Source of the DNA: Chthoniobacterales bacterium
Lineage (GTDB): Bacteria; Verrucomicrobiota; Verrucomicrobiia; Chthoniobacterales; UBA10450
Direction: 5' to 3'
Assembly (NCBI GenBank): GCA_013821455.1
Contig: JACDGS010000044.1
Location: 1 to 33,091, forward strand
Length of the DNA stretch: 33,091 nt
Shown here: piece by piece, positions 10,024 to 33,091 of the stretch
Position numbering within the stretch: the stretch's first letter is position 1
Layout: each line of letters opens with the position of its first letter
Program-made: the position numbers and the translations under genes
The notes under the pieces: generated by a model
The model's input: only the letters and a program-made list of their open reading frames with translations
Database searches by the model: none
What the model was told of the DNA's origin: nothing

Positions 10024-10026
10024 CCT

Positions 10027-10975: not shown

Positions 10976-10990
10976 GTCGCTCTCGCCAGC

Positions 10991-11022
10991 GCCTAACCAA
11001 GTGATGGAGCCAACCAAAAGGA
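10991..11022 (+). other. Left half of interrupted attC site 3
   Basis: GCCTAACCAAGTGATGGAGC followed by CAACC is the standard left arm with a perfect R'' (10991-10997). The rest of the site is missing: sequence after about 11018 is unrelated, and the matching right arm reappears only at 12465-12491, beyond the FG-GAP gene. Confidence 0.75.
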
Positions 11023-11197
11023 AAGTAGAAAGGTGAAAGTGGAAAGCAGCCGTAACGGATGCGAAGCAACGGCCGGGCTTTCAAAGAGCTTCTTGCTCGC
11101 TCTCCTTGCTCATCCCATGACTCTTTTCGAAAAGAGCTTGTTATTTCTTAGACTGTTTGCTGAGATTCGGAAAAATCCCTGAAAAAAAGCCACTCCA

Positions 11198-12392: not shown

Positions 12393-12464
12393 GCCGCGCC
12401 CGGCGATCCGTTGCGAGTTCAGGTCGGCGTTACCGCTCGGAAGAGGGGATTGCCTGCAAATCCG

Positions 12465-12491
12465 TGGTGGCTGATCTTGTTCTCGTTAGGT
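12465..12491 (+). other. Right half of interrupted attC site 3
   Basis: This is GTGGTGGCTGATCTTG followed by TTCTCGTTAGGT, the consensus right arm with R' GTTAGGT (12485-12491). No R'' or left arm is found between it and the FG-GAP stop. A further weak R'-like box, GTTGGAT preceded by TTCTC, lies at 12586-12592, leaving a gene-less stretch of about 100 bp. Confidence 0.75.
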
Positions 12492-12626
12492 CTGATCGTG
12501 AATGAATCGCTGCGCCTACTGCGTGCGCCTGGCTTTGGCCTTTTGTGTTGCGCTATGTCGTGGCAGGCTAGCCGACTCCGTTCTCGTTGGATGTAGCAAC
12601 ATCGCTAAGAACATTGTAGGGAAACT

Positions 12627-13100
12627 ATGAAACAAACACTTCTCGCAGTTCTGTTCGTCGTCGCTTCAACACTTCACGGTAGCGGCCAGCAGGGAGCTCT
12701 CGCTAAGAGCGGCAAGTCGGGCGAATTATTCGACGCGATCAGTCGGATGGACGGTGTAGCGTTTAGCGCGTTCAATGCGCACGAGGCTAAACGTCTCATG
12801 ACGATGTTCACGAACGATCTCGAGTTTTATCACGATAGTGGCGGGCTGACGGATTTCCGACAGACGGGCGACAACTTCACCACGATGTTCGGGCGCACGC
12901 CCGATATTCGGAGAGAGCTCGTCCCCGGAAGCCTGGAGGTGTATCCGATCAAAGATTACGGCGCGATCGAACTCGGGCAGCATCGCTTTTGTCACCAGGA
13001 AAATGGAAAAGAGGAGTGTGGCATTTTCGGGTTTGCGATGGTGTGGCGAAAGTCCGGTGACGTGTGGCAAATCTCACGCGTGCTTAGCTATGGGCATTAG
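12627..13100 (+). CDS. Exported NTF2/SnoaL-like (DUF4440-type) protein
   Basis: This 157-residue protein has an N-terminal signal sequence (MKQTLLAVLFVVASTLHGSG) and an NTF2-like body: FDAISRMDGVAFSAFNAHEA, MTMFTNDLEFYHDSGGLTDF, IKDYGAIELGQHRF and AMVWRKSGDVWQISRVLSY. Such domains bind small molecules or act as simple enzymes; the specific role is unknown. The ATG at 12627 is fixed by the signal peptide. The stop lies 25 bp before the R'' of attC 4, so it fits a cassette gene, though its left boundary is degenerate. It is the second NTF2-fold product in the array. Confidence 0.8.
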   Translation: MKQTLLAVLFVVASTLHGSGQQGALAKSGKSGELFDAISRMDGVAFSAFNAHEAKRLMTMFTNDLEFYHDSGGLTDFRQTGDNFTTMFGRTPDIRRELVPGSLEVYPIKDYGAIELGQHRFCHQENGKEECGIFGFAMVWRKSGDVWQISRVLSYGH

Positions 13101-13125
13101 GAGGCCGATAGTAGGGGGTTTTCGC

Positions 13126-13263
13126 AGCTAACCAGATGCCAACCGCTGGCCCGCGTACGCTCAACCTTTTCATGACTCAAACCTCTTTTCCCGCCGCCCC
13201 GCGCGCCCTCGCCAGTCGAAGACTCGCCGTGGAGAGCGGTGACGGATCTTGTTCTCGTTAGGC
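13126..13263 (+). other. attC site 4
   Basis: R'' is AGCTAAC (13126-13132, one position off consensus) and R' is GTTAGGC (13257-13263). The left arm CCAACCGCTGGCCCGCGTAC is standard. The right arm carries an extra segment, CCAGTCGAAGACTCGC, also present in attC 7, before GGATCTTGTTCTCGTTAGGC. Confidence 0.82.
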
Positions 13264-13265
13264 GT

Positions 13266-13673
13266 ATGGCAAGCACATTCGAGGGCGGGTGTTTATGCGG
13301 AGGCGTCCGCTATCGTCTACACGGCAGGCCAAAGCAGGGGAGTGACTGCCATTGCGAAGATTGCCGGCGGGCGAGTGCTGCTCCGTATGTGACTTGGTGT
13401 AGCGTTCCCAGCAAAGCGGTAGAGGTTCTGCGCGGTGAACTGCGTAGAGTCTTATATGCAGACCGATTACGCTCGTTCGCCTCTTGTTGTGGCACGCCTT
13501 TGTTTATCCAGGACGAAGTCAGTTCTGCACGGATTGACGTGACAGTAGCGTCGCTCGATGATCCTAAGACCCTGCACCCGGAGGCCGCGATATGGACAGA
13601 AGACAAACTCCCGTGGGTCCAGCTCGATCCGAGTCGACCTGCTTTTCGCCAGAACAGAGATGAAAACGCCTAA
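13266..13673 (+). CDS. GFA domain (glutathione-dependent formaldehyde-activating-like) zinc protein
   Basis: This 135-residue protein has the cysteine pattern of the GFA fold: GGCLCGGVRYR near the start, CHCEDCRRASAAPYVTW at about 30-45, and SCCGTPLF near 80, which together bind zinc. Some members act on glutathione adducts; most are uncharacterised. The ATG at 13266 lies 2 bp after R' of attC 4, and the TAA stop lies inside the R'' of the next attC, so the gene fills its cassette completely. Upstream in-frame sequence (ADLVLVR) is translated attC and is excluded. Confidence 0.92.
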   Translation: MASTFEGGCLCGGVRYRLHGRPKQGSDCHCEDCRRASAAPYVTWCSVPSKAVEVLRGELRRVLYADRLRSFASCCGTPLFIQDEVSSARIDVTVASLDDPKTLHPEAAIWTEDKLPWVQLDPSRPAFRQNRDENA

Positions 13674-13885
13674 CCATGCGATGCTGCGAATCGCTGGCCG
13701 GCGTATGCTCACGTTTCCCATGACTCACACCTGTTCTCCCGCCGCCACGCGCGCTTTGATTAGTTCCCTCTGCTCGCTTCCTCTTCGCGCTGTCGTCTAT
13801 ATCACGGCTTAACCCTCCGTTTCGTTCGCCAGCGTGGCGCTGTGTGGTTACCTTACGCTGGTGGCTGATCTTGTTCTCGTTAGGT
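13668..13885 (+). other. attC site 5, composite
   Basis: R'' GCCTAAC (13668-13674) with a standard left arm is followed by a second R''-like box, GCTTAAC (13807-13813), and one R' GTTAGGT (13879-13885). The shorter 79-bp pairing (GCCAGCGTGG with ACGCTGGTGGC) may be the working site. The preceding part could be the left half of an older site. Confidence 0.75.
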
Positions 13886-14004
13886 TCTGTGATGGCCGGC
13901 TTTGCTAATTGGGCCTCTCCGGCGCTCGCCTCCATTTCTCCGAGAGTGTTCGAGGGCCGCGATTCGGCTTGGCGATATTCGCGGCTGGCCTTTAGTCTGA
14001 AGCG

Positions 14005-14991
14005 GTGAAACCGCTGCGCATCGGGATTGTGGGATTCGACCAGGTGGACGCACTCGATCTGGTCGGTCCCGCGGAAGCTTTCGCCAACGCGCAAACCCAG
14101 GATGCCAAGGGCAACGCGGTCGCCGCCTATGAAGTGGTGATCCTTGGACTAACGAACGCGCGTTTCGTGGCCGAGTCGGGGATTGTGCTGCAGCCGCGGA
14201 CGACGCTGCGCGCTGCGCCGAAGCTCGACACCATTATCATCCCGGGAGGCGCAGGATTGCGGCGCGCGGAAACGAATCGAGCCGTGGCGCGCTGGATCGA
14301 AGGGCAGGCGGAGAAGGTCCGCCGCGTCGTCTCGATCTGCACGGGCATCTACGCTGTCGCGGCAACCGGCCTGCTCGATGGCCGGCGCGTGACGACTCAC
14401 TGGCGGTTTGCGGCCGATGTGGCTCGGCGCTTTCCGAATCTGCACGTGGAGCCAAACTCGCTCTTCATTCAGGACGGCCATTTCTACACGTCGGCCGGGG
14501 TGACGGCCGGGATCGATCTCGCGCTGGCTCTGATCGAGGAAGACCTGGGGCGCAAGGCGGCGCTGAGGGTGGCGCGCGACTTAGTCGTCTTTCTGAAACG
14601 GCCGGGGGGGCAGGATCAATATTCGGAACCGTTGCGCTTCCAGACGATGGCGACCGATCGATTGGCGGAGCTGGCCAGTTGGATCGCGGCTAACCTGCAG
14701 CGCGATCTCTCGATCCCGGCGCTGGCTGAGCGCGCCTGTCTTTCCCCGCGGCATTTCGTGCGGCGTTTTGAGGCGGCTTTTAAGCAAACGCCCGGCGTCT
14801 TTGTGCGCGACCGCCGGTTGGATGAAGCGCGGCAGCGTTTGAACACCGAGAATCTCTCGATCGATGCCATCGCCGACTCAGTCGGTTTTCAGAGCACCGA
14901 CGCTTTTTGCCGGGCTTTTCGCCATCGCTTTCACCTTACGCCCACGGACTATCGGCGTAATTTTGGCTTCGATAGTAAGTCAGCCGACTGA
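14005..14991 (+). CDS. GlxA-type AraC family regulator with DJ-1/PfpI domain
   Basis: This 328-residue protein has an N-terminal DJ-1/PfpI-like domain (residues 1-190; LDTIIIPGGAG and SICTGIYAVAATGLLDGRRVTTHW with the nucleophile-position Cys112) and a C-terminal AraC DNA-binding domain from about residue 218 (LQRDLSIPALAERACLSPRHFVRRF, SIDAIADSVGFQSTDAFCRAF). Members are transcription regulators whose first domain probably senses a metabolite. The start is GTG 14005, set by the conserved MKPLRIGIVGFD opening. It lies 120 bp past R' and no R'' follows it, so it does not look like a simple cassette gene. It converges with the HAF gene over a strong hairpin. Confidence 0.92.
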   Translation: MKPLRIGIVGFDQVDALDLVGPAEAFANAQTQDAKGNAVAAYEVVILGLTNARFVAESGIVLQPRTTLRAAPKLDTIIIPGGAGLRRAETNRAVARWIEGQAEKVRRVVSICTGIYAVAATGLLDGRRVTTHWRFAADVARRFPNLHVEPNSLFIQDGHFYTSAGVTAGIDLALALIEEDLGRKAALRVARDLVVFLKRPGGQDQYSEPLRFQTMATDRLAELASWIAANLQRDLSIPALAERACLSPRHFVRRFEAAFKQTPGVFVRDRRLDEARQRLNTENLSIDAIADSVGFQSTDAFCRAFRHRFHLTPTDYRRNFGFDSKSAD

Positions 14992-15085
14992 CTCAAGACA
15001 GCAAGCTGGCCTACGTTCGTTAGTTATATCGTGATCAACTTGTGCGTGTCGCTGAGTCCAGCAACTTGACGATCTCGATGGCTTC

Positions 15086-15109
15086 GCCGGGCGCCGATTG
15101 GCGCCCGGC
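15086..15109. terminator. Strong hairpin between convergent genes
   Basis: GCCGGGCGCC and GGCGCCCGGC form a perfect 10-bp GC stem around a GATT loop, between the AraC/GlxA regulator (+) and the HAF-repeat gene (-). It could terminate from both sides, although neither side has a T-run. Confidence 0.6.
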
Positions 15110-15133
15110 ATTCCTCGAACTACTTAACTACAC

Positions 15134-16129
15134 TTACATGGCCGGCGCCCCGACGCCCGATCCTGCCGGAGACGACCGCGCGGGTTTGATCGCTTTCGCG
15201 GGCACCGCGTTCGTCTTATCCGAGTTACCGCCGAGGTTGACCTTCGCGAGGATGCCGTGTTCGCCGCCATCAGCGTCGACGTAGCGGCCGGTGATATATC
15301 CCTGCGCATTGATCCCGTTAAAGGAGGTAAAGGTCGATCCGGGATAATCGAAACTCACTAACTCATCCGGCGTGACGAAGAAGAGGCCATGAGTGATGCC
15401 ATCGGCGTCGGTGTAGCGTCCTACGACCCAATTGGAATCGTTGTTGCCAAAGAGGGCTGTGGCCGTGGCCCCTTCCGGGCTGATCGGGTAGGTCAAAGTG
15501 CCATCGCTGGCGCGAAGATACCCACGGGGAGTCACGCCGTCCGCATCGATGTAGTAACCCACGCTCTGATTCGAAGCATTGATCTGATAAGCCAGCGTCG
15601 CGGTCGAGTCGGGAACCGCAAAGATAGTAACGGCGCCACCGATGCTGACGAAGCCGCTCTGCGTGACGCCGTCACTGGCCACCACGCTGCCGGCAAAATC
15701 GCCGGCATTGTTGATGCCAAGGGTCAGTGTGCTCGAAGCGTCGGGGAGGTCGAACCCGGTAAAGACGTGACGCGCCAGGAAAAAGCCATGGATAGTGCCA
15801 TCCGTCACGTTAGTGTAGTTGCCGCAGATCGTGCGAGCGTCATTGATCCCGCGGCCTTGGGTCAGCCCAGCGGTGTCGTTAGGCTCCGTGAACGCACCGC
15901 TGAATTGGCCGTTGCGCGCGCGATAGAAGCCTTTGGTGACGCCGGTCGCGGCGTCAACCACCGACCCGACGATGTCGCCCCGATTATTGATCTTCTGTGG
16001 CTCGGTCAATTTTCCTACTCCGGGAAAATCGAACGTTTCGATCACTTCGATCGTTGCCGCCGAGGCAGCGTTGCCGAAAAGCGGCAAGCCCGCCAGGACT
16101 GCCGTGATAATTAGATGTCTTACTCTCAT
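15134..16129 (-). CDS. Secreted HAF-repeat protein
   Basis: This 331-residue protein has a signal peptide (MRVRHLIITAVLAGLPLFGNAASA) followed by tandem HAF-type repeats: INNRGDIVGSVVDAATGVTKGFYRA, INDARTICGNYTNVTDGTIHGFFL, INNAGDFAGSVV, INASNQSVGYYID, and INAQGYITGRYVDADGGEHGIL. Each unit has an 'IN..G.i.G.y.d..g..hGf' core. Function is unknown; such proteins are exported by many environmental bacteria. The C-terminal tail is Ala/Pro/Ser rich with no sorting motif that I recognise. It is the only minus-strand gene within the cassette array, opposite to cassette direction, so it probably arrived by insertion. Confidence 0.85.
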   Translation of the reverse strand: MRVRHLIITAVLAGLPLFGNAASAATIEVIETFDFPGVGKLTEPQKINNRGDIVGSVVDAATGVTKGFYRARNGQFSGAFTEPNDTAGLTQGRGINDARTICGNYTNVTDGTIHGFFLARHVFTGFDLPDASSTLTLGINNAGDFAGSVVASDGVTQSGFVSIGGAVTIFAVPDSTATLAYQINASNQSVGYYIDADGVTPRGYLRASDGTLTYPISPEGATATALFGNNDSNWVVGRYTDADGITHGLFFVTPDELVSFDYPGSTFTSFNGINAQGYITGRYVDADGGEHGILAKVNLGGNSDKTNAVPAKAIKPARSSPAGSGVGAPAM

Positions 16130-16575
16130 AATACTGATTGCCTTTCTGATTGGTTGTTGTCGTTGTTAACTGTCGACGGCGAAGGTGGAACGACATCACC
16201 GCGAACCAAATGACGAAGAACCGACAAGAAATGACACGTCGTGAGACGGGCATCGGGTCGTGACGGTCGAAGGGGATGGTAACGACACTTCGACATTTAG
16301 GTGAAGGATGCGGACACGTGTTAAAAGGAGATCAGGCTCAAGAAACATCAGGTGGCGGCCGTCGCAGTTGTTCTCGCTGAGAGGCGGCGGCGGGGCGACA
16401 GTTTCGCGGGTGGCATGCAAGTCGTCGACAGCGGGAAGAGCTACGAGAATCGCTTGTCGCGAAGACCGCTTCATCTGCGATGCGCGGCCGGCCCGGTATG
16501 AGTTGACTCGTCCGGAAGCGCGACCTTCACCTTCCGGGACCACGTTCTAGCGCTGACCTGTATGCAACGCCAATC
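16130..16575. other. Gene-free stretch upstream of the HAF gene
   Basis: No convincing gene is seen on either strand, and the frames present have no recognisable features. The stretch presumably contains the HAF gene promoter (reading left). The bases just before attC 6 do not show a clear R' or R'' other than that of attC 6. Confidence 0.4.
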
Positions 16576-16697
16576 GTCTAGCCAAGAGATGCTGCAAACC
16601 GCTGGCCGGCTTACGCTCCAGTTTTCCATGACTCAAACCTCTCCTCCGCCGCCACGCGCGCTCTCGCCAGCGGTGGCTGATCTTGTTCTCGTTAGAT
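16576..16697 (+). other. attC site 6
   Basis: R'' is degenerate (GTCTAGC, 16576-16582) and R' is GTTAGAT (16691-16697). The stem CAAACCGCTGGCCGG pairs with the CGCCAGCGGTGGCTG arm. The central CCATGACTCAAACCTC block is shared with neighbouring sites. Confidence 0.88.
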
Positions 16698-17196
16698 GAC
16701 TCCCCGAGCCCCTTCACGACTTCGCTGTGTTCAGCTATTTCTTCTGCTATGCCTTTGGCATCTTTCCGGATGTCTTATCGCGGTCTTGCCCGAGGTTGCA
16801 GAATCGCGAATCATCGTTACGCCGACCACCTTAGAAGACGCCTTCCCTGGAGTGCATGACGCGATGGCCGAGTTCAGTCTGAAATATGGTTATAAGAGCT
16901 CTACGCCCTGGCATTCCCCGCCTGAAATGGCGTTGACAGATTATGGAGTGGGCGGCGGCCTATTTAGACATAGGAGCGACTCTCCCAACGCGGCGGATCG
17001 CCCCGACTCTCTTTCTGTATTCCGTGGTTTCAATCGCACGATTGTCATCACCTACCAAAGCAAAGGGGATGTCCGAGCAAATGACAATCCTGTCGTCAAC
17101 GATCTTAAAGCGATTCTCCACCAACATACTCAAGGACAGCGTATAGCTTACGTCTACACACCGAGTCATTGGGACATTATCGGTCCCGGCGATTAA
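16696..17196 (+). CDS. Cassette-encoded predicted lipoprotein, unknown function
   Basis: This 166-residue product has a lipoprotein signal: arginine-rich start, hydrophobic LFLLLCLWHL, then the lipobox LSGC with Cys26. The rest is not recognised; it contains VTPTTLEDAFPGVHDAMAEF, a Gly-rich VGGGLFRH segment, and ends PSHWDIIGPGD. The ATG overlaps the last two bases of R' of attC 6, so the recombination site itself supplies most of the start codon. The stop lies 15 bp before the R'' of attC 7. It is likely anchored at a cell membrane facing the periplasm. Confidence 0.75.
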   Translation: MTPRAPSRLRCVQLFLLLCLWHLSGCLIAVLPEVAESRIIVTPTTLEDAFPGVHDAMAEFSLKYGYKSSTPWHSPPEMALTDYGVGGGLFRHRSDSPNAADRPDSLSVFRGFNRTIVITYQSKGDVRANDNPVVNDLKAILHQHTQGQRIAYVYTPSHWDIIGPGD

Positions 17197-17211
17197 CGTG
17201 AACTCAAAGTC

Positions 17212-17322
17212 ATCTAACCATGCGATGCAGACAACCGCTGGCCGGCGTACGCCCGAGTTCCATGAGCCAAACCTCATCTCCCGCCCCCACGGACGCCCTC
17301 GCCAGTCGAAGACTCGCTAGGC
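17212..17322 (+). other. attC site 7, degenerate R'
   Basis: R'' is ATCTAAC (17212-17218) with a perfect left arm CAACCGCTGGCCGGCGTACG. The right arm shares CCAGTCGAAGACTCGC with attC 4 but then ends at once in GCTAGGC (17316-17322), apparently through loss of the GGCTGATCTTG block and a T-to-C change in the core. It is probably inactive. Confidence 0.7.
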
Positions 17323-17344
17323 CTTATACCTTGCCCCATCAGCT

Positions 17345-17980
17345 ATGCAAACAGATCCCAATTACGTGTCCGTTTTGTTCGTTAATCTTTTGCAGCCAAT
17401 ATTTGATTTATTTAAGCTGCTGGAGCAATCTGATCCCAAAGGTCCCAACGAGGTACAGGCAGGAATGCTTGAAAACGGCTACGCCGTTTCCATTATTGTT
17501 CTTTCCGCGCTCGTCCTGGATTCGGCCCTGAACCGCACTCGCTACGTCCGCAGCGAGCTAAAGCGCGAGAGCACCGTTGCTACATTAAAAAGACTTGGTG
17601 CCGATCACCTGGCTCAAGACATAGAGGAAATCTTCGCGCTTCGCGACAGTATCGCACACAATCACATTTGGAAGGTCGCCATGCACTGGAACCATAGCAG
17701 TGGAATGGCGCTGGACTCTGCCGAAAAACTTCCGGCTTATGGCGACGAGAAGTTTAATCGCGTTGTCGATTCAAAAACACGCGCAACACATCGCTTGCAC
17801 TTGGACGCGTTTCCAAATCGCATTCACCGTGCTACAGCAATTGCGGTTCTAAAGAAGACTGTTGAAGCCCTAAAGTTTTTGGAAGGGCTCGACCGCAGAT
17901 ATGTTTATCTTAGCCAGCCTTGGCATGTCACAAGAGGCAACGAGCTTGTTCCCTTCTACAAATGGGTCGACGGTTTATGA
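17345..17980 (+). CDS. Cassette-encoded protein, possible HEPN-like domain
   Basis: This 211-residue protein is not assigned to a family with certainty. It is largely helical, with an N-terminal region (VSVLFVNLLQPIFDLFKLLE), a hydrophobic helix (GYAVSIIVLSALVLDSAL), and the segment EIFALRDSIAHNHIWK, where R100 and H105 give the R-X4-H spacing used by HEPN-domain RNases and by related RiboL-PSP/Swt1-like proteins. HEPN proteins are frequent in toxin-antitoxin and defence systems, but that role is only an inference. The ATG at 17345 is the first plausible one, 22 bp after the degenerate R'. A 55-residue membrane protein gene follows 29 bp downstream. Confidence 0.65.
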   Translation: MQTDPNYVSVLFVNLLQPIFDLFKLLEQSDPKGPNEVQAGMLENGYAVSIIVLSALVLDSALNRTRYVRSELKRESTVATLKRLGADHLAQDIEEIFALRDSIAHNHIWKVAMHWNHSSGMALDSAEKLPAYGDEKFNRVVDSKTRATHRLHLDAFPNRIHRATAIAVLKKTVEALKFLEGLDRRYVYLSQPWHVTRGNELVPFYKWVDGL

Positions 17981-18009
17981 TACCCTAAAACCTCACGATC
18001 AATGCCCTA

Positions 18010-18177
18010 ATGAAAAGACTACTCGGAGGAATTTTGGCGTTCGCCCTTATGTCGGAGCTTATTGCCGTATTTTGTTACGGAGGCTGGATTCGCTGGATTT
18101 TAGTGGCTGCGATTCTTATTCCGTGCGGCCTTCTCAACCTTGTAGGAGCTGGGTCGTTTTGGGGAAAGGCACCTTGA
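18010..18177 (+). CDS. Small hydrophobic membrane protein
   Basis: A 55-residue frame reads MKRLLGGILAFALMSELIAVF, then a CYGGWIRW turn, ILVAAILIPCGLLNLVGAG, and the tail SFWGKAP. Two predicted membrane helices joined by a short turn are consistent with a real small membrane protein. It follows the possible HEPN-like gene in the same cassette and orientation, so the two could be a functional pair, for example with the small protein acting as partner or membrane anchor. No strong ribosome binding site is seen. A longer overlapping frame (17901-18263) in another phase is less plausible. Confidence 0.5.
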   Translation: MKRLLGGILAFALMSELIAVFCYGGWIRWILVAAILIPCGLLNLVGAGSFWGKAP

Positions 18178-18213
18178 TTTCATCGACGAAAGCCGAGCAA
18201 GCTTTAGCCATGC

Positions 18214-18238
18214 GGAGGACACATCATTACGGTCCTCC
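18214..18238 (+). terminator. Possible hairpin terminator
   Basis: GGAGGAC pairs with GTCCTCC over an 11-base loop and is followed by TCATTT. It lies 36 bp after the small membrane protein gene. The T-run is weak. Confidence 0.35.
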
Positions 18239-18304
18239 TCATTTGACGGTGAGCACATGTTGAGCGAGCAAATATATTAGGATGTTTCGTGATTTCACGC
18301 CTGA

Positions 18305-18427
18305 GCCTAACCATGCGATGCAGCCAACCGCTGGTCGGTGTACGCTCAAGTTTTCCATGACTCCAGCCTCGCATCCCGCCGCCATACGCGCCTTCGCCAG
18401 CGGTGGCTGATCTTGTTCTCGTTAGGT
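18305..18427 (+). other. attC site 8
   Basis: R'' is GCCTAAC (18305-18311) and R' is GTTAGGT (18421-18427). The left arm CAACCGCTGG and right arm CCAGCGGTGGCTG are complementary, and the terminal arm CTGATCTTGTTCTCGTTAG is intact. It is one of the most complete sites in the array. Confidence 0.93.
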
Positions 18428-19106
18428 GTTTAAGCGCGTGAGCACAACATCACTACTTGGCTATCTGGCGCACGAAATTATCGCACCGGTGACGAGAAAG
18501 GGCCTTTTCGCTGGCCGGTATGTGTCCTTCGCAGAATACCTGTCACACGCTCAGCTTTTGTATGAGTTAACCGCGATATTGGGCTATATGTATCGCGACA
18601 AATTGGAGAAATTCGCGACGCTGTTTAGCGAGCCAGGACGTCAGGCCGACTTGGCCGCGTTTCTCGCCACCGGGAGTTCCGTCGCAGATCGTGTGGCAGG
18701 GCTGGCCGACGAACCGAAGGATGTTTATGACCTGTTCTTCGAGTCCGAGGGAACGAAGTTGATGAAAGCAATGCAAAAGGGTGGTGCCACCCAATTCTCA
18801 GACTGGTCCGATCTTCCCAAAGTTTGGAGGCTTAAGCTGCCCATTAAACTCTATTTTGAACATCTATGTATGACCGCCCTTGAGGGCATTCAGCTTGGGA
18901 GCCAGTACCCCGAAATGACTGAGAGATTGTTTTCATACAGGCGTGACCCAGCCGAATGGAGCGCTGCGTATCAATTCGGTTTGGACATTGGCCCTTCAGC
19001 TCCGGAAACCGTACCACTGCCGGAGCGCCAATCCGAGGCGAAGGCACTGATAAGGCCGTACGTTGAACGAGTCCACCCAAACTTACTCGCCGATTTAGGG
19101 CTGTAA
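18426..19106 (+). CDS. Cassette-encoded protein of unknown function
   Basis: This 226-residue product is not recognised. It appears soluble and alpha-helical, with stretches such as SFAEYLSHAQLLYELTAILG, EPKDVYDLFFESEGTKLMKA and LKLPIKLYFEHLCMTALEG. There is no signal peptide. The first start is GTG 18426, whose G and T belong to the R' box of attC 8; a second GTG (18438) is possible. The stop lies 15 bp before the R'' of attC 9, so the gene fills the cassette. Codon use resembles its neighbours less than the chromosomal genes do, with more AT-ending codons. Confidence 0.7.
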   Translation: MFKRVSTTSLLGYLAHEIIAPVTRKGLFAGRYVSFAEYLSHAQLLYELTAILGYMYRDKLEKFATLFSEPGRQADLAAFLATGSSVADRVAGLADEPKDVYDLFFESEGTKLMKAMQKGGATQFSDWSDLPKVWRLKLPIKLYFEHLCMTALEGIQLGSQYPEMTERLFSYRRDPAEWSAAYQFGLDIGPSAPETVPLPERQSEAKALIRPYVERVHPNLLADLGL

Positions 19107-19121
19107 CCGATGAGAGGAAAA

Positions 19122-19245
19122 GCCTAACCAGGCGATGCAGCTAACGCCTACCCGGCGTACGATCACTTTTAATGATAGCTAGAACTCTTTATCTCCGCGC
19201 CCGGCGCGCTCCCGGTAGGCGTGGCTGATCTTGTTCTCGTTAGGT
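19122..19245 (+). other. attC site 9 (GCCTACC stem class)
   Basis: R'' is GCCTAAC (19122-19128) and R' is GTTAGGT (19239-19245). The inner stem uses CTAACGCCTACCCGG paired with CCCGGTAGGCGTGGCTG, as in attC 2. The 3' arm contains the exact 19-mer shared across the array. Confidence 0.93.
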
Positions 19246-19262
19246 CGTAAGACGCGGCTGAA

Positions 19263-26197: not shown

Positions 26198-27715
26198 CTA
26201 CTGCACGGTGATGCGCCTGGCTCCCGAGGCAATGCCATTTGCCACCACCTCGATGGTGCTCCGGCCGGTCTCCACATTCGCGGGCAGGTCAACCATGGTG
26301 GAGACAATAGTGCTACCCGTAGCTATACCCATGCTGCTATGATCGTGCGTCCGGGCATAAAAGACGTGCCCGGATGCTTGGTTCGTTAGGCGCACGATCG
26401 GATAGTTAGTCGCGTTCGTCGCGTCATCACCGTAATCGCTGCCGTCGGAGAGCCCGTTAAACTGCGTGCCCGAGATCTGAAAGGTCGTCCCGCGCGTGAT
26501 CGTCCTTGGCACTCGCCGGATGGTCGGCGCCCAGGCCGGATTAGCGGTGCCTGTGGAAGTGAAGAGCTCCGCGTCAATCGTTCTGCCCTCCGCTGCCACC
26601 CAGAGTACCTGGCCCGTGGGCAATACCAGTTGCCGACCTTGATAGGAAGTAAGGTTGCCCGAGCTTTGGGTGGGAGGAGCCGGGGTAAAGGTGATGCCGT
26701 CGAAGAAATAGAAGGTGCCCGGCGGGTTAAAAACTCCGGGGCTGGTAAAAACTAGGATATTCCCATCGGGCAAAATCGCCGCGGGCGCATCGGCCATATC
26801 GTTCCCGCCGGGGAAGTCAGGCCCGACCGTCCAGGTCGAGGTGGTGGTGTTATAGATAGAGTTATGAACTGTTCCTCCAAAGGCGACGACAGTTCCATCC
26901 GGCCGCTGAATCTTAGGGCCTATCTCCTCGCTCGACGCGTCGGTGAGCTTGACGATCGTGCTGCCGGCCGTGCTCCAGAGTTGGGTGGTAGGGTTATAGC
27001 GTTCCGAGTTAGTCCCATTTGTCGTATCGATGAGCAGGACAGTGCCATCGGGCAGAATGGTCAGGCCTTCCTCGCTGAAGGCATCTGCTTTGCCGGTGCC
27101 CACGGGCGTCCAAGTCAAGGTCGCAGCATTAAAGAGCGCCTGCTTGGTCGATGGAAAACCGCCCTGACCCATCATAAAAGTCCCATCCTTTAGCACCACA
27201 CAGGGTGAGTCTCCGATGGTGGACCAGCCAGCCGGCGGATTCACCGTCGTCCAAGTGTTAACCACGGGGTCATAAATCGCGCCCATGTTTGTCTCGGTCT
27301 GGGCGCCCTTGTTATATTCGCCACCCTCCACCAGCACACGGCCATCGGGGAGGACAGCGGAGGCAAAGTAGAGCGGCCCATAAGTCGATACCATCGAAGC
27401 GAGCTGGGACCAGGTGCCATTGAGATAACTGCCAGAGCTATCCGGAGTCAGCCGCCACCAGTTGGCGCTGCTATATTGATGCATCATGACGGTTCCATCG
27501 GTCAGCAGCAGCCCGGTATCGGTCTGGAACGGAGGCTGATTAGTCAGCTTGGTCCAGCTGCCGGTCTCAGCCTCCTTTTGGCCGGGCAAACCCAGGCGTT
27601 GCGCGGAAGCGGATTGCGTGATGACCAGTGTGGCCGCCAAGGCGGCAACACCCGAGAAGAGGGGCAGAAGACGGCGCCGGAATGCGGCGCGAATAAGTGC
27701 AGGTTGATCTGTCAT
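26198..27715 (-). CDS. Secreted galactose-oxidase/kelch-like protein
   Basis: This 505-residue protein has a signal peptide (MTDQPALIRAAFRRRLLPLF... to SASAQ) and a beta-propeller body with kelch-like units: LLLTDGTVMMHQ, FASAVLPDGRVLVEGGEYN, VVLKDGTFMMGQGG, LTILPDGTVLLIDT, AAILPDGNILVFTSPGVF, LVLPTGQVLWVAAEG. The C-terminal domain has FQISGTQFNGLSDGSDYGDD and ends VEVVANGIASGARRITVQ, as in the DUF1929/E-set domain of galactose-oxidase-like proteins. Whether copper-radical catalysis occurs is not established. The start is ATG 27715; the frame extends to 28027, but the extra residues lack any signal feature. It is a paralogue of the large plus-strand gene at 29050. Confidence 0.88.
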   Translation of the reverse strand: MTDQPALIRAAFRRRLLPLFSGVAALAATLVITQSASAQRLGLPGQKEAETGSWTKLTNQPPFQTDTGLLLTDGTVMMHQYSSANWWRLTPDSSGSYLNGTWSQLASMVSTYGPLYFASAVLPDGRVLVEGGEYNKGAQTETNMGAIYDPVVNTWTTVNPPAGWSTIGDSPCVVLKDGTFMMGQGGFPSTKQALFNAATLTWTPVGTGKADAFSEEGLTILPDGTVLLIDTTNGTNSERYNPTTQLWSTAGSTIVKLTDASSEEIGPKIQRPDGTVVAFGGTVHNSIYNTTTSTWTVGPDFPGGNDMADAPAAILPDGNILVFTSPGVFNPPGTFYFFDGITFTPAPPTQSSGNLTSYQGRQLVLPTGQVLWVAAEGRTIDAELFTSTGTANPAWAPTIRRVPRTITRGTTFQISGTQFNGLSDGSDYGDDATNATNYPIVRLTNQASGHVFYARTHDHSSMGIATGSTIVSTMVDLPANVETGRSTIEVVANGIASGARRITVQ

Positions 27716-27889
27716 TATTGCAAGGTTAGGCGTACCGCGCCTCGCGACACAAGACAATTTGTCGGAAACTGCTTTTTGGCGACACTCGGCCGGTGCCTCC
27801 GCCACGCCCAAGGCTACGAAAAAAATGCGCGCAATCTCCCGCTCAGGTCGTTCCCAAACGCGCCTCATCACCTCGTCTCCCAAATCCCT

Positions 27890-27935
27890 CGTTCCCAAAC
27901 ACCGTTTGGGAACGCACATGTCCCGGCAACTCTGG
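27890..27935. repeat. Paired hairpin repeats, second copy
   Basis: CGTTCCCAAAC-ACC-GTTTGGGAACG (27890-27914, 11-bp stem) is followed within 10 bp by GGCAAC-TCTG-GTTGCC. The same two elements lie at 4564-4614 in the opposite order. The stem change from A-T to C-G keeps pairing. A partial extra CGTTCCCAAAC occurs near 27849. Confidence 0.7.
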
Positions 27936-28103
27936 TTGCCTCGCTCGCGAGCCGCTCTTTCTCCCATTTTACGACGCCTAACGAGTAAAGCCCGGTGCGT
28001 CGCGGCCGAGGCAGCAGGTCTTTCCAAAGTAAAAGTAACTAACGAATCGGTGCGGTCGTCGCGCGGCTAAGCGCCCTCCCCGCGTTCCACGAACGGGCCA
28101 AAA

Positions 28104-28131
28104 CCGCGAGCCGCTTTTCGCGCGCTCGCGG
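28104..28131. repeat. GC-rich hairpin
   Basis: CCGCGAGC and GCTCGCGG flank a 12-base loop. The hairpin lies in the intergenic region upstream of the minus-strand galactose-oxidase-like gene. Role unknown; it may be a terminator for whatever lay here earlier. Confidence 0.4.
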
Positions 28132-28185
28132 CTGGCTGTTCCTCTTGGTTAACTGGGAAACTCGTTCGTATTTGAGCGCTGGTAA

Positions 28186-28455
28186 CCGGCTGCCATTGGC
28201 CAGGCCGTTGCTGTCGTTATAGGCGTCAATAAGACCATTGCTTTTAGCGGCGCGAATTACCACAGCAGCGCAAATGGAAGATTGTATACTGGCGGAGCTT
28301 TCACCATTTCAAGTATTAACCCATTCACCGGGACACCATATGTCAATCTTGACTCAAATGGTTTCGGCGACTGGAAAACAATTACCTTCGGGCCATTATC
28401 TTGGGGGCCGCAGCCAGGGAAGGGAACCCAAGTGGTGCTATACGACAAATTGTAA
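28186..28455 (+). pseudogene. Orphan C-terminal fragment of a secreted protein
   Basis: An 89-residue open stretch without a credible start codon reads NKTIAFSGANYHSSANGR, then LYTGGAFTISSINPFTGTPY, VNLDSNGFGDWKTITF and GPLSWGPQPGKGTQVVLYDKL before a TAA. The composition is protein-like and differs from the surrounding repeat DNA. It looks like the end of an exported protein whose 5' part is gone. I cannot name the family. Confidence 0.5.
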
Positions 28456-28675
28456 ATTCTAGACGATCACATCTGGTGGGGGAGAGGCGGGCAGGAAAGC
28501 AGGGTCACGTCTAAAGGGCGTGTTGCCCAAATCGGATTGGTCTGCTGTCAGGTTCCCGAACAACCTTCCGCCATACTTTGCAAAGTGTGACAAACGAGGG
28601 GAGAGGGTGCGGAAGCCTCTTCGACTTGATTGCGCTTGGGTGCGATTTTGAAACGAAGCCTCTTTGGGCAACACT

Positions 28676-28706
28676 CCCTAAACACTTTGACAATTTGAAT
28701 TCGGAC
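28676..28706 (+). repeat. 31-bp repeat, left copy (inverted with 32755-32785)
   Basis: This segment begins CCCTAAACACTTTGACAA. It matches the reverse complement of 32755-32785 at 29 of 31 positions. The two copies lie outside the large galactose-oxidase-like gene, one on each side. Confidence 0.75.
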
Positions 28707-28943
28707 GAACCTTTCTGCACTGGCGCAACTCCTCTTGGAATGCTTCTTTCAAGAAATGTCGAAGAGGTTAGACGTGACCCTGCCTGCTCCTCTCCTAACG
28801 AATAAAGGACGCGGAGCCGGATGAGTTCCTCAAGCGCGGGGACTGGCCCGCGCCATGACGAGACCGGTGGTCGCGCGCAATTGCTTCCACTTTCCAAGTA
28901 AGATGATGGCCGGAAAAAATTCGCGCTGTCATGCATTTTTTTC

Positions 28944-28971
28944 TTGGCATGACTCTTCGCGCCGTTAATTT
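28944..28971 (+). promoter_or_regulatory. Possible sigma-70-type promoter for the large gene
   Basis: TTGGCA and TAATTT are separated by 16 bp, about 80 bp before the start at 29050. The match is moderate and unsupported by other evidence. Confidence 0.3.
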
Positions 28972-29033
28972 AAGTGCGGTTTCGGGTTCCCTGCCATGAG
29001 GCGCACGTCCTGGCCGGCAGGCGGGCCGTGCTA

Positions 29034-29040
29034 CAAGGAG
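29034..29040 (+). promoter_or_regulatory. Strong Shine-Dalgarno deciding the start at 29050
   Basis: AAGGAGG lies 9 bases before ATG 29050. The upstream in-frame ATG at 28996 has no such site, and the extra 18 residues match nothing in the paralogue. Confidence 0.75.
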
Positions 29041-29049
29041 GAAAAGTAT

Positions 29050-32000
29050 ATGGGCTCGTGGAATGGTTTAGCGAATCAACCTTCGTTCAACGCCGATACG
29101 ATGTTACTGCTGACCGATGGCACGGTCATGTGTCATGAGACTAGCAGTAAGAACTGGCATAAGCTGACACCCGACGCGAATGGCAGTTATCGCAATGGCA
29201 CCTGGTCGAATCTCGCGTCGCTCCCGGATAACTCAAACATTCCGGCCTCGAGTGGCGGCCCTACGCAGGCGCCTCTCTATTTCGCCTCGGCTGTCCTGCG
29301 CGATGGGACAGTGATCACGGGCGGCGGCGAGTATAACTCTGGAAATGCGAATGCTGACATCCTAACGATGCAAATCTACGATCCGTTAGCCGATGCCTGG
29401 ACCGCGGTAGCGCCGCCTTCCGGCTGGGGCGGCATAGGGGACGCCGCTTCCTGTGTCCTGCCTGACGGCACATTTTTGCTCGCGAGTTTTAATTCCTCCA
29501 ACGCGGCCCTCTTCGATCCTATGACTCGCATCTGGCAGCCGACAGGCGCGAAGGGCGATAGTTGTAGCGAAGAGACTTTCACTCTCCTGCCCAATGGCAA
29601 TGTGCTGACGGTGCAGTGCTCGAACGCGCCGAAAGCCGAGCAATACATCCCTAGCAGTAACACTTGGATTGCGGCGGGCAGCACACCTTCCACCTTACCC
29701 CAGGCGTGTCCCGGCTTTGTCGCGGAGATTGGGCCGGCGCTCTTACTAACGAACGGCAAGGTCTTGGCCGTGGGTGCGACCGGTAACACAGCTATCTATA
29801 CGCCCAAGGCCGACCCGACTCAGGCTGGCACATGGTCAGCCGGACCTACTCTGAAGGATTCTAGTAATAACACTCAGTTTCCCATGGACGCGCCCGGTGT
29901 TCTCCTGCCGAATGGTAAGGTATTGTTGGTCGGCAGTCCCGCGCCGGCTTGTAGCTATCCGTCGCCGGAGACTTTCTTTGAGTACGATCCTTCTAATAAC
30001 ACTGCGCCAGTTATCTCAGGTCCATCGAACAACGGCGGCCCGGCCTACACCAGCCGGCTGCTATTGTTACCTACGGGCGAGGTCCTGCATTCCAACGGCT
30101 CGAATGACATAGAGGTTTACACGCCTGACGCCGGCGGGCAGGCCTCGTGGAAGCCGACACTTACCAATGTGCCGTCGGCCATGATCGTAGGACATCATTA
30201 CCAAATTTTTGGCACGCAGTTCAACGGCTTGTCTCAGGCGTGTAGTTATGGCGACGATGCGCAATGCGCCACTAACTATCCTATCGTGCGCCTCTCGAAT
30301 AACTCGGGACAAGTAAGGTATCTGCGGACGCGCGATCACTCTACCATGGGTGTGGCAACGGGAAGCGCTACCGTCAACACAATCGTAGAAGTACCGTCGG
30401 ACCTCACGACAGGTCAGTGGAATCTCGTCGTGGTTGCGAATGGCATCGCCTCTGACTCACAAGCCGTCACGATAGGGACGCGCGATTGCTTCTTCCTTGT
30501 CGATCGCAGCACTTATGCGCAGGGCGAGGTCCAGGCTAAGATCAACCTAAGTGGCGCGCCGGCCATTTTCGAAGATGCCCTATGGGTCGTAGTGGAAGGT
30601 TTCAGCAAGGACCAGTTAGGCACGACCGCGCCCGCTATTCCCGATCCGATCGGCGGCATGTCTTATGTCTCGACTGGGGCGCCTATCCCGCAGGATCCTT
30701 CGCTCCCATCATCGGCCGTGCAACGATGGACCTTCCCTTTCCAAGCCAGATTTAGTGGGACGGGAATGTTCACCAACAACCCGCAAATACTGGTCGTCAG
30801 CACCAGCCTGACGGCGGACGGGGCGCATGTGTCCGCCGGGGCGGAGATCGAGCTGCTGAATACGCCAAATCCTTTCATCCTGCACGGCGACATCGCGCAT
30901 AATAAACCCTGGTATCTCAGTGTGGATTTGCGCGTCTTTCAGATGACGGCGGGAGATACGAAGTTTGCCGTCCACCTTAATGGCACGCCTAACGACTGGA
31001 TTGGCAGCGCGATCGCTAACCTGAATACCGATCCGGGGCCGTTAGGCGCAGTCTTCGACGCTCTTCCGCAGGACGACGAAGACGCCGCTGCCCTGACTCT
31101 GGCCCCGACCGATGGCAGCGGCCACGCGGTATACAACTTCGCCCTTGCGCGCGTGCGTTACCAGGATGTGCAGGTCGCCTCGAAGGTTCGCGTTTTCTTC
31201 CGGCTTTGGCCGGCGCAACAGACTAATGCGACCTATGACAGTAACACCACTTACCGGAGTGCGACCTCCGCCGGTAAGAAGATCCCCCTCCTGGGAGTGA
31301 TCGGCGATGAGATCATTACGATTCCCTTCTTCGCCGGACCGCGGGTCGCGACTTCCCAGAAGATGACGACGCAAACCGATCCTAAGAACGTGCGCGACAT
31401 TCATCCCGACCCGCTTGGCGCCGAGGTCGATTCCTACTTTGGTTGCTGGCTGGATATCAACCAGCCTAACGACAACCGCTTTCCGCCGCGGCTGGTCGGC
31501 GCGCCGACGCCGTCGGACATTCCCGATGGTCCCTTTAACGGCTTCGCGCAATTAGTCTCCATCCAGCAACTGGTACGCAGCGAGCACCAATGTCTGCTCG
31601 CGGAGGTATCCTTCGATCCCGATCCGATCCCGGCGAGCGCCGACCCGTCGATCTCGGATAAGCTGGCGCAAAGGAACCTCGCCTTTGTCAACGTGCCCAA
31701 CCCAGGAATCGAAGCCTCGCGCATCGCTCCACAGACCTTTGAGATCAGGCCCACTCTCGGGCTGAAGATGGATAACCGGCCCGATGAACTAATGATCCTC
31801 TGGGGAAATACGCCTAACGAGTCTAAGGCTAACATTTATCTCCCGGGCGCGAATGCGGCCGAGATACTCGATTGGGCGAACAATATCTACACCGCGCATC
31901 GGTTAACGATGTTGGATGCGCACACGATCGAGACCGTGACCGGCGGGGTGACTTATCTCCCCGTGCCGCAGGGTTCGGGCGCGAACTTTGCGGGACTTAT

Positions 32001-32676
32001 GTCGATCGCGCTGCCGGCTACGGTACAGAAAGGGCATAAGTATGAGATCACCGTCCGCCAGGTCACCAGCATGCAGTTCGGTCGCGGCGGGAATGACCAA
32101 ACAAAATCCGAGCTCTTCGTCTCGCGCACTGGATTTACCTGGCGGCGGACGCTGGGGATTTTCCAATTGAACATACCAGTTGGGACAAAGAAAGAGTTAC
32201 TCGAACCGGCGGAGCGACTCTATGCCATCCTACTTTGGATCAAGAAAGCAATCCCATCGCAAAGCCGATGGTATCCCGTCTTCGAACGCTACCTCAAGCT
32301 CATGGCCGGCCGCGTCGAAGGGATGGGCGGCGATCCGACTAAGATCAAACCCTCAGGATGGGGCGTCGTCCCCGGGAAGAAGGGCCATGGGCAGGACGAC
32401 GATGGAGATGACGAGGGCTTAGGGCAACGGGGTGAGGAAGAAATCTGTGGGAAGGTAGTCGGACTGGTCTATAACCACTTTGGCGACTTCGAGGCGTTCC
32501 TGGTTGAGATCGGGTGCGGCGCGCGCCGGAAATTTGTCAGCAAAGAAGTGAGAGTCGAGCGGCTTGCTCGCGAGGCGTGGGAAAGCCGCTGCACGGTCGC
32601 TGTGATTGTGAGTGAGAAGCACCCGGAATGTCCGGTGCGAATCATCCTCGGCGGGACGACGAGATGTGAGTGCTAG
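29050..32676 (+). CDS. Large galactose-oxidase/kelch-like protein with long C-terminal extension
   Basis: This 1208-residue protein begins with a beta-propeller homologous to the minus-strand gene at 26198 (LLLTDGTVMCHETSSKNW, FASAVLRDGTVITGGGEYN, VLLPNGKVLLVGS, FGTQFNGLSQACSYGDDAQC). The propeller plus E-set part takes about 480 residues. A further 730 follow: beta-rich segments, a helical piece near ELLEPAERLYAILLWIKKAI, an acidic DDDGDDEG linker, and a compact end domain (VVGLVYNHFGDFEAFLVEIG ... AREAWESRC). No signal peptide is seen, unlike the paralogue. The start is set by a strong AAGGAGG. Five CCTAACG/CGTTAGG motifs lie within. Function unknown; enzymatic activity is not implied. Confidence 0.88.
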   Translation: MGSWNGLANQPSFNADTMLLLTDGTVMCHETSSKNWHKLTPDANGSYRNGTWSNLASLPDNSNIPASSGGPTQAPLYFASAVLRDGTVITGGGEYNSGNANADILTMQIYDPLADAWTAVAPPSGWGGIGDAASCVLPDGTFLLASFNSSNAALFDPMTRIWQPTGAKGDSCSEETFTLLPNGNVLTVQCSNAPKAEQYIPSSNTWIAAGSTPSTLPQACPGFVAEIGPALLLTNGKVLAVGATGNTAIYTPKADPTQAGTWSAGPTLKDSSNNTQFPMDAPGVLLPNGKVLLVGSPAPACSYPSPETFFEYDPSNNTAPVISGPSNNGGPAYTSRLLLLPTGEVLHSNGSNDIEVYTPDAGGQASWKPTLTNVPSAMIVGHHYQIFGTQFNGLSQACSYGDDAQCATNYPIVRLSNNSGQVRYLRTRDHSTMGVATGSATVNTIVEVPSDLTTGQWNLVVVANGIASDSQAVTIGTRDCFFLVDRSTYAQGEVQAKINLSGAPAIFEDALWVVVEGFSKDQLGTTAPAIPDPIGGMSYVSTGAPIPQDPSLPSSAVQRWTFPFQARFSGTGMFTNNPQILVVSTSLTADGAHVSAGAEIELLNTPNPFILHGDIAHNKPWYLSVDLRVFQMTAGDTKFAVHLNGTPNDWIGSAIANLNTDPGPLGAVFDALPQDDEDAAALTLAPTDGSGHAVYNFALARVRYQDVQVASKVRVFFRLWPAQQTNATYDSNTTYRSATSAGKKIPLLGVIGDEIITIPFFAGPRVATSQKMTTQTDPKNVRDIHPDPLGAEVDSYFGCWLDINQPNDNRFPPRLVGAPTPSDIPDGPFNGFAQLVSIQQLVRSEHQCLLAEVSFDPDPIPASADPSISDKLAQRNLAFVNVPNPGIEASRIAPQTFEIRPTLGLKMDNRPDELMILWGNTPNESKANIYLPGANAAEILDWANNIYTAHRLTMLDAHTIETVTGGVTYLPVPQGSGANFAGLMSIALPATVQKGHKYEITVRQVTSMQFGRGGNDQTKSELFVSRTGFTWRRTLGIFQLNIPVGTKKELLEPAERLYAILLWIKKAIPSQSRWYPVFERYLKLMAGRVEGMGGDPTKIKPSGWGVVPGKKGHGQDDDGDDEGLGQRGEEEICGKVVGLVYNHFGDFEAFLVEIGCGARRKFVSKEVRVERLAREAWESRCTVAVIVSEKHPECPVRIILGGTTRCEC
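32372..32475 (+). repeat. 104-bp direct repeat, copy 1
   Basis: This stretch is identical to the last 104 bases of the window (32988-33091). It lies in the coding region of the acidic linker and the start of the terminal domain of the large gene. Confidence 0.95.
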
Positions 32677-32754
32677 TGAACGTGGCGAAAGTCCATGCTG
32701 CGCTGCGTGGCGAGGATCGTCGCGGAGACCGCCAAGGGGGGCGCGGAAAGCGTT

Positions 32755-32785
32755 GTCTGAATTCGAATTGTCAAAGTGTTTAGGG
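32755..32785 (-). repeat. 31-bp repeat, right copy (inverted with 28676-28706)
   Basis: This segment ends TCAAAGTGTTTAGGG and matches the reverse complement of 28676-28706 except at two positions. It lies 79 bp after the stop of the large gene. A partial relative (CCAAATTGTCAAGATTTG) lies at about 32944. Confidence 0.75.
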
Positions 32786-32987
32786 CGTGTCCCCGCATCT
32801 CTGCGGGAGCGATCCGAGGAAGGTCGCTTTGGCCCGACTCTTGTGGCGCGGCACGACATTGCGGCGTCTGGGAACGGAACGGATCAAAGGGAATGTGCCC
32901 AAGAGTTTGGCGTCTTTCCTGGAGCGCGCCATGGGTCATAACTCCAAATTGTCAAGATTTGCACACTGACCCCCATTCCCCTTAACT

Positions 32988-33091
32988 CCGGGAAGAAGGG
33001 CCATGGGCAGGACGACGATGGAGATGACGAGGGCTTAGGGCAACGGGGTGAGGAAGAAATCTGTGGGAAGGTAGTCGGACTGGTCTATAAC
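32988..33091 (+). repeat. 104-bp direct repeat, copy 2 at window end
   Basis: This is an exact copy of 32372-32475, and the window stops within the copied sequence. It may be the start of a second, similar gene copy or an assembly overlap at a contig end. Confidence 0.95.

What the first reader, a model, noticed from the sequence alone, without database searches (positions are those of the whole stretch)
26198..32676. Divergent galactose-oxidase-like paralogues, one with a 730-residue extension and no signal peptide
Two clear paralogues face away from each other. The minus-strand copy is a normal secreted form. The plus-strand copy has lost the signal peptide and gained a long extension ending in an acidic linker and a compact terminal domain (VVGLVYNHFGDFEAFL). 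The change of compartment and architecture suggests a new role.
Basis: partly seen in the sequence, partly recalled or inferred. Interest (0 to 1): 0.5.

Follow-up and report, generated by a model that had tools for sequence, protein, structure and literature searches.

The report
Swappable enzymes on one conserved chassis
The odd extension on this galactose-oxidase-like protein is a large unnamed protein module that bacteria from many phyla, and one archaeon, carry joined to many unrelated enzyme-like domains without an export signal, which suggests a shared and so far unrecognised way of holding or delivering such proteins.

Summary
In detail: two divergent kelch/E-set paralogues (45% identical); the minus copy has a signal peptide, the plus copy (likely start 29050, 1208 aa) has none and carries a 733-aa extension. 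But "lost" and "gained" here is wrong. The same fusion occurs in 14 other genomes, signal-less in the 13 with a visible N-terminus, and the extension is a C-terminal chassis in 80 further loci kept of 90 found (15 named phyla, one archaeon). Its N-terminal partner varies: glutaminase, S53 and M35 peptidases, phosphoesterase, BNR and Vps10 propellers, others unnamed. No library named the chassis above cut-off. AlphaFold (pLDDT 89) shows Ig-like sandwiches, a helical hairpin and an OB fold; in 16 of 82 loci a membrane tail replaces the OB fold, with charges placing the enzyme in the cytoplasm. Both paralogues lack the copper-radical cofactor. A contractile-injection tube gene occurs in 30 of 81 carriers, against 3 of 193 and 18 of 198 genomes in two phylum samples; but 51 carriers lack it and no tube gene lies near the 80 loci. 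Best reading: cytoplasm-held modular effectors released by lysis or contractile injection. Modularity is shown; delivery is inferred.

The parts
26198..27715 (-). kelch/E-set paralogue without extension (505 aa, signal peptide)
29035..29041 (+). AAGGAGG ribosome-binding site, 8 nt before the ATG at 29050
   Evidence: sequence
29050..32676 (+). whole signal-less fusion gene, 1208 aa
29050..30474 (+). N-terminal kelch-type propeller plus E-set domain (residues 1-475); copper-radical cofactor absent
   Evidence: (kelch hits below cut-off)
30475..30861 (+). chassis part 1: Ig/cadherin-like beta-sandwich (extension residues 1-129)
   Evidence: model m2e93b12d8c4f
30862..32187 (+). chassis part 2: further beta-rich domains, with conserved SDKLAQRN and PDELMI motifs (extension residues 130-571)
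   Evidence: the two motifs were also the scan patterns
32188..32322 (+). chassis part 3: two helices (extension residues 572-616)
32323..32430 (+). linker, acidic and of low confidence in its second half
   Evidence: pLDDT under 50 at 638-652
32431..32655 (+). terminal OB-fold domain, replaced by a membrane tail in 16 of 82 loci

Best explanation
The plus-strand gene belongs to an unnamed, horizontally spread family of two-part proteins: a swappable N-terminal enzyme or binding domain of a kind usually exported, and a conserved C-terminal chassis of Ig-like domains, a helical hairpin and either an OB fold or a membrane tail. Shown computationally: the modularity, the absence of a recognisable signal peptide, and the cytoplasm-side charge pattern of the membrane-tailed members. 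Inferred: the proteins are made and held inside the cell, soluble or at the inner face of the membrane, as latent effectors, and act outside only when the cell lyses or when a contractile injection system delivers them; the chassis is the holding or delivery part and the N-terminal domain the payload. In the window the payload is a kelch-type propeller without the copper-radical cofactor, so it more likely binds a glycan or protein than oxidises a sugar.
For: Chassis in 80 kept loci of 90 found, 15 named phyla, on N-termini that form 16 BLAST clusters, one of them a short fragment; six clusters carry Pfam-named domains above cut-off among 20 representatives scanned. Active-site motifs are seen in several glutaminase, M35, S53 and zincin-like members. 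Domain swapping: 19 changes for 15 N-terminal classes on the chassis tree; 34 phylum changes. No canonical signal peptide seen. Charge pattern: in the 15 tails with 3-4 predicted segments the central inner loop has 2-6 Lys/Arg and the outer loops 0-1. Contractile tube family PF06841 in 19 of 50 plus 10 of 30 carriers, and in the window's genome, against 3 of 193 and 18 of 198; within Acidobacteriota 5 of 17 carriers, Fisher p 0.023; within the window's phylum 2 of 2 carriers, p 0.0005. G000:C38 holds sheath, tubes, spike, baseplate-like and ATPase genes. A survey describes eCIS particles as released following cell lysis (PMC8213781, passage).
Against: 51 of 80 carriers have no PF06841 match, isolates such as Reyranella soli, Bradyrhizobium Ec3.3 and Paraburkholderia oxyphila, elongata and lacunae among them. 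The cap family PF14065 was found in 17 of the 50 carriers tested. No tube gene and no BLAST match to the window genome's eCIS proteins in the 80 module loci (952 kb), and no module in the short tube/cap loci fetched. No neighbour family recurs in more than 5 loci. PF06841 also occurs in T4-like phages. Ig-like stalks and AB5-like OB folds are more typical of extracellular proteins. Matched backgrounds exist for two phyla only. The signal-peptide test is a hydropathy scan, not a trained predictor.
Confidence: 0.45

Rival explanations
1. Surface or secreted adhesin-enzymes exported by an unrecognised, signal-independent route: the Ig-like domains form a stalk and the OB fold binds a glycan, much as in AB5 B subunits.
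For: Ig/cadherin/integrin-type matches for the sandwiches; AB5 B subunits dominate the Foldseek list for the OB domain; partner domains are of exported kinds (exported nature recalled, shown here only for the kelch paralogues).
Against: No signal peptide seen; charge pattern of the membrane tails puts the N-terminal part inside; OB is a generic fold: SilF (Z 10.0) and the protein-glutaminase prodomain (Z 8.7) score as high.
Confidence: 0.2
2. Purely intracellular proteins: stress or self-destruct hydrolases, or scaffolds, that work in the cytoplasm and have nothing to do with contractile systems; the co-occurrence reflects environmental lifestyle and large genomes.
For: 51 of 80 carriers lack the tube marker; no linkage; inner-face charge pattern.
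Against: Enrichment also within two phyla (Mantel-Haenszel p 0.0002); such a range of secretory-type domains is odd for housekeeping; no match in the PADLOC defence library for the 6 members scanned.
Confidence: 0.25
3. The missing signal peptide is an artefact of a frameshift, a wrong start or contig ends.
For: The contig ends 415 bases after the gene, in a 104-bp repeat of it.
Against: Strong ribosome-binding site at the internal start; 13 homologous N-termini begin at the same place without a signal.
Confidence: 0.03

Closest known systems
Galactose oxidase / GlxA copper radical oxidases
   Same: kelch-type propeller followed by an E-set domain; the subfamily profile finds galactose oxidase among other kelch chains in the PDB
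   Different: cofactor Cys and Tyr and the His after the second Tyr not conserved; GlxA model 23.4 bits against a cut-off of 800; no signal peptide; 733-aa extension
Contractile-injection effectors (eCIS-associated toxins, e.g. with DUF4157; PMC8213781, passages)
   Same: enzymes with varied domains, enriched in genomes that carry such systems, wide horizontal spread
   Different: variable part N-terminal, shared part C-terminal; no tube gene near the 80 loci; no DUF4157 hit in the proteins scanned; 51 of 80 carriers lack the tube marker
Polymorphic toxins
   Same: one conserved part, many exchangeable effector domains
   Different: order reversed; no recurring neighbour of immunity type; no Pfam-named trafficking domain above cut-off
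CisA, the Streptomyces membrane adaptor of a cytoplasmic contractile system (PMC12237407, passages, some from the abstract)
   Same: cytoplasmic N-terminus tied to the membrane in an organism with a cytoplasmic contractile system
   Different: CisA is bitopic with a largely unstructured N-terminus; no direct comparison was run
B subunits of AB5 toxins (OB fold)
   Same: fold of the terminal domain (1cqf, Shiga-type B: Z 8.5, rmsd 2.0, 66 residues)
   Different: no sequence match in the PDB set; similar or higher Z for unrelated OB folds such as SilF (Z 10.0); one domain at the end of a signal-less protein

Membership tests
Copper radical oxidase (galactose oxidase / GlxA) | Cys-Tyr cofactor and Tyr/His/His copper ligands | tested here: not met
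   columns placed by recalled motifs in two other genes of the genome (L099, L100, which keep them by construction): Cys 0 of 16 rows; cofactor Tyr 1 of 16 (L027); second Tyr 3 of 17; His after it 0 of 17; last His 0 of 16 in the column itself, but a His lies 4 columns on in 8 rows and 6 columns on in 6 rows, window included, so that ligand is unsure. Rows: window, two paralogues, 14 homologues.
Copper radical oxidase (galactose oxidase / GlxA) | kelch propeller with C-terminal E-set domain | tested here: inconclusive
   profile search finds kelch and galactose oxidase chains over parts of the propeller; no structure of this domain was predicted
Copper radical oxidase (galactose oxidase / GlxA) | NCBIfam GlxA curated cut-off (800 bits) | tested here: not met
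   23.4 and 14.3 bits
eCIS effector | carrier genome encodes a contractile injection system | tested here: inconclusive
   PF06841 in 30 of 81 carriers; drafts may miss it, and T4-like phages also carry it
eCIS effector | encoded in or next to the system's locus | tested here: not met
   no tube-HMM match in 80 module loci, 952 kb; no BLAST match of the 11 C38 proteins. For the window itself open: its contig ends 415 bases after the gene and C38 begins inside the sheath gene
eCIS effector | loaded into and ejected by the particle | not testable with these tools
   needs experiment
Polymorphic toxin | constant delivery part with exchangeable effector domain | tested here: inconclusive
   constant and exchangeable parts shown, in reversed order; that the constant part delivers is not shown
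Polymorphic toxin | adjacent immunity gene | tested here: inconclusive
   no shared neighbour family beyond 5 loci; locus-specific immunity genes not tested
AB5-type B subunit | OB fold | tested here: met
   a generic fold
AB5-type B subunit | secreted by signal peptide | tested here: not met
AB5-type B subunit | pentamer that binds glycans | not testable with these tools
   no oligomer prediction available

The most novel reading that the evidence does not exclude
The chassis is a general cargo adaptor: a C-terminal, fully folded module by which bacteria and some archaea keep many kinds of secretory-type enzyme inside the cell and send them out through contractile injection or programmed lysis, with the OB tail and the membrane tail as two alternative docking ends.
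Probability: 0.25. Interest if true: 0.85.

Novelty: new variant of a known kind. Interest (0 to 1): 0.62.

Why it matters
A 730-residue module spread over 15 named phyla and joined to many unrelated enzyme-type domains has no name above cut-off in Pfam (11 members scanned), NCBIfam, PHROGs or the PDB sequence set. If it is a holding or delivery chassis, it would let payloads be predicted from sequence alone, including in genomes with contractile systems of unknown cargo, and it would explain signal-less copies of usually exported enzymes.

Tried and rejected
Rejected: recent local loss of a signal peptide (13 homologues share the start); a working galactose oxidase; a phage or viral origin of the module (no relative in the scans of viral contigs and phage records; in the viral structure library the 50 rows shown have query-normalised TM-scores of 0.14 or less); an anti-phage system by PADLOC for 6 members; obligatory dependence on a contractile system (51 of 80 carriers lack the tube marker); a general mobile cassette with terminal inverted repeats (of 69 loci only the window and L028 exceed the highest of 150 control pairs, 29.7 bits, while L092 equals it; L028 has its repeat in both orientations).

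Led nowhere: first genome-contig scan with the single protein (nothing); phylum search with the 3-row profile (1 of 387, the window's own genome); 69-row profile in 199 genomes of the phylum of L017's genome (only that genome itself), so the family is rare; PDB sequence searches with the chassis (best E 0.91), the OB domain (none), ThuA-like N-termini (two antibody chains, E 0.045), zincin-like and C10 N-termini (none). Sub-cut-off Pfam matches of the chassis: TrAA12 in L060 (E 0.0017, 17.2 of 30.9 bits) and a holin family in L041 (E 0.033); for the OB domain three families in 1 of 42 members each (best E 0.0017). In the VIA-align list for the chassis only residues 1-129 and 388-569 are well covered; lack of matches elsewhere shows nothing. 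ThuA-like, zincin-like, G1-like and PQQ-like are labels given by eye, with no library hit. My first tail classification by a pattern missed OB tails; the HMM count (64 OB, 16 membrane, 2 neither, of 82) replaces it. L013 and L089 are the same contig, so 82 loci are 81 distinct places. Tree: quick method, two long branches (L056, L057) of unsure place; L024 (no OB tail) was labelled OB in it; rows L053 and L076 had no N-terminal class and were not counted.

Papers: PMC8213781, PMC11297309 (the only passages shown were from its reference list) and PMC12237407 were seen as passages; all others as search listings. Nothing was found for contractile injection system plus galactose oxidase, the motif SDKLAQRN or the Paraburkholderia accession; two searches gave no papers; some searches gave listings in whose titles and abstract starts I saw no such family. 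8 of 10 paper searches used; no supplements read.
Full report
Observation. The window is a whole contig (C78) of a 4.3-Mb, 117-contig genome. The two paralogues are as described: minus CDS 26198-27715 with a signal peptide, plus frame 28996-32676 without. The plus gene most likely starts at 29050: AAGGAGG lies 8 nt upstream, and 13 homologous frames begin, signal-less, directly at the propeller (a 14th, L020, is cut by its contig end). The two share 45% identity over 481 positions. A third paralogue on contig C2 has a signal-like N-terminus and no extension.

The extension is a module. The 733-residue extension has no Pfam hit and no PDB sequence relative (best E 1.4, best E 0.91). It is found almost whole (98%, 38.5% identity) in a Paraburkholderia sprentiae plasmid protein whose N-terminus is not kelch but zincin-like by motif, and in G080, a genome of the same order. 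A three-row profile scan of genome contigs gave 126 candidates, 90 confirmed, 80 kept. These come from 15 named phyla, with one archaeon; 5 loci have no phylum name. Extension-bearing frames were found in 82 loci (the 80 plus L012 and L013; L013 equals L089). N-terminal regions over 60 residues fall into 16 BLAST clusters; some may share a fold, and one is a short fragment. Among 20 representatives Pfam names six clusters above cut-off: Gln_deamidase_2, Pro-kuma_activ (with Peptidase_S8), BNR_2, Aspzincin_M35, Phosphoesterase and Sortilin-Vps10. The kelch cluster has 14 loci plus the window; the window's own kelch hits are below Pfam's cut-off. Active-site motifs are seen in several members: DDGC and HVAP in glutaminases, HExSHA in M35, ExTQD and GTSxxAP in S53 (residue roles recalled; not all members matched my patterns).

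Evolution. On a chassis tree of 69 rows built without the tail columns, N-terminal class changes at least 19 times for 15 classes, tail type 3 times, phylum 34 times. S53, ThuA-like and zincin-like classes each occur in separated parts. So payloads appear to have been exchanged and the genes to have moved between phyla. Yet the family is rare: 2 of 98 relatives, the window's own genome being one, 1 of 387 in the phylum, again the window's own, 1 of 199 in another phylum, its own centre. No neighbour family recurs in more than 5 loci. The scan used two conserved motifs as patterns, so counts are lower bounds and the invariance of those motifs is biased.

Structure. AlphaFold on a 69-row alignment gave pLDDT 89.2, pTM 0.82: an Ig/cadherin-like sandwich (1-129), further beta-rich domains, two helices (572-616), a linker and a terminal OB fold (653-727). 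Foldseek hits are mostly multi-Ig proteins with low TM-scores. The OB domain alone (pLDDT 90.6) matches SilF (Z 10.0), AB5 B subunits (Z up to 8.8) and the protein-glutaminase prodomain (Z 8.7); Foldseek's best E is 0.013. This is a shared fold; homology is not shown. By HMM, 64 of 82 loci end in the OB domain, 16 in a membrane tail, 2 (L024, L025) in neither.

Compartment. Among 75 N-terminal regions, scanned from up to four possible starts each, 8 reach hydropathy 2.2: L038, L091 and L092 in the first strand of the ThuA-like domain, L028, L037 and L078 from starts inside the domain, L018 upstream of the conserved start, and L048 only just. L041 has a hydrophobic stretch upstream of the start that its homologues L043 and L081 use. 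I saw no canonical signal peptide. In 15 of the 16 membrane tails (3-4 predicted segments), the loops expected outside have 0-1 Lys/Arg and the central inner loop 2-6; the sixteenth (L078) has two segments. By the positive-inside rule the large N-terminal part lies in the cytoplasm. This is the strongest evidence for the change of compartment, though it comes from the membrane-tailed branches, not from the window's.

Chemistry. Two other genes of this genome (L099, L100) carry the Cys, Tyr, Tyr-His and His motifs of copper radical oxidases (motifs recalled). In the columns so placed, the window's paralogues and the kelch relatives lack the Cys (0 of 16), the cofactor Tyr (1 of 16) and the His after the second Tyr (0 of 17). 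The last His is unsure: a His lies 4 or 6 columns on in many rows, the window's included. The propeller is therefore probably a binding domain.

Link to contractile systems. The window's genome encodes a sheath (cut by the contig start, below the Pfam cut-off), two tubes, and LysM, spike, gp25-like, baseplate-like and AAA ATPase genes at C38:1-16216 (components other than sheath and tubes named by eye). The tube family PF06841 occurs in 19 of 50 and 10 of 30 carriers, and the cap family PF14065 in 17 of the 50 tested. Backgrounds: 3 of 193 (window's phylum, window's genome excluded) and 18 of 198 (Acidobacteriota, centre excluded, one sub-cut-off match not counted). Within Acidobacteriota 5 of 17 carriers have it (p 0.023); within the window's phylum 2 of 2 (p 0.0005), pooled p 0.0002. 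The window's phylum is taken as Verrucomicrobiota because G080, of the same order, has the contig of the MAG so titled. Kelch-type carriers: 9 of 14 plus the window. Against the link: 51 of 80 carriers lack the marker, and neither the window genome's eCIS proteins nor a tube HMM built from 48 frames of 34 loci match anything in the 80 module loci. A published survey gives 1.9% of bacterial genomes with eCIS (PMC8213781, passage).

Conclusion. A modular family with exchangeable signal-less payloads is well supported. Cytoplasmic holding is supported for the membrane-tailed members and inferred for the OB-tailed ones, the window's included. Delivery by contractile injection or lysis is a hypothesis backed by partial co-occurrence only.

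Noticed in passing
window 32372-32475 and 32988-33091: Perfect 104-bp direct repeat: the contig's last bases repeat the linker/terminal-domain coding stretch; no other copy found in the genome. Either a partial duplication or an assembly overlap.
   Followed up: partly
window 28671-28718 and 32743-32790: 48-bp inverted repeat (85%) flanking the plus-strand gene, well above control pairs; not general in the family.
   Followed up: partly
L108 (G000:C38) 1-16216: Contractile injection system cluster in the window's genome, sheath gene cut at the contig start.
   Followed up: partly
L099, L100 (G000 C105, C62): Two copper-radical-oxidase-like genes with the ligand motifs and, by eye, extra C-terminal Ig-like domains.
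   Followed up: no
window 9970-19246: About ten copies of an interspersed repeat family (pairwise matches of 24-127 bp, 69-100% alike).
   Followed up: no
L022, L023, L045, L059 C-termini: The linker before the OB domain is very rich in His and Asp, as if metal-binding.
   Followed up: no
L041 6010-8163: The membrane tail resembles a phage holin family weakly (PF16083, E 0.033, below cut-off).
   Followed up: no
L039 C-terminus: About 127 further residues follow the OB fold.
   Followed up: no
window 29050-30474: PHROG family phrog_16216 (unknown function) matches the propeller, E 1.4e-9.
   Followed up: no
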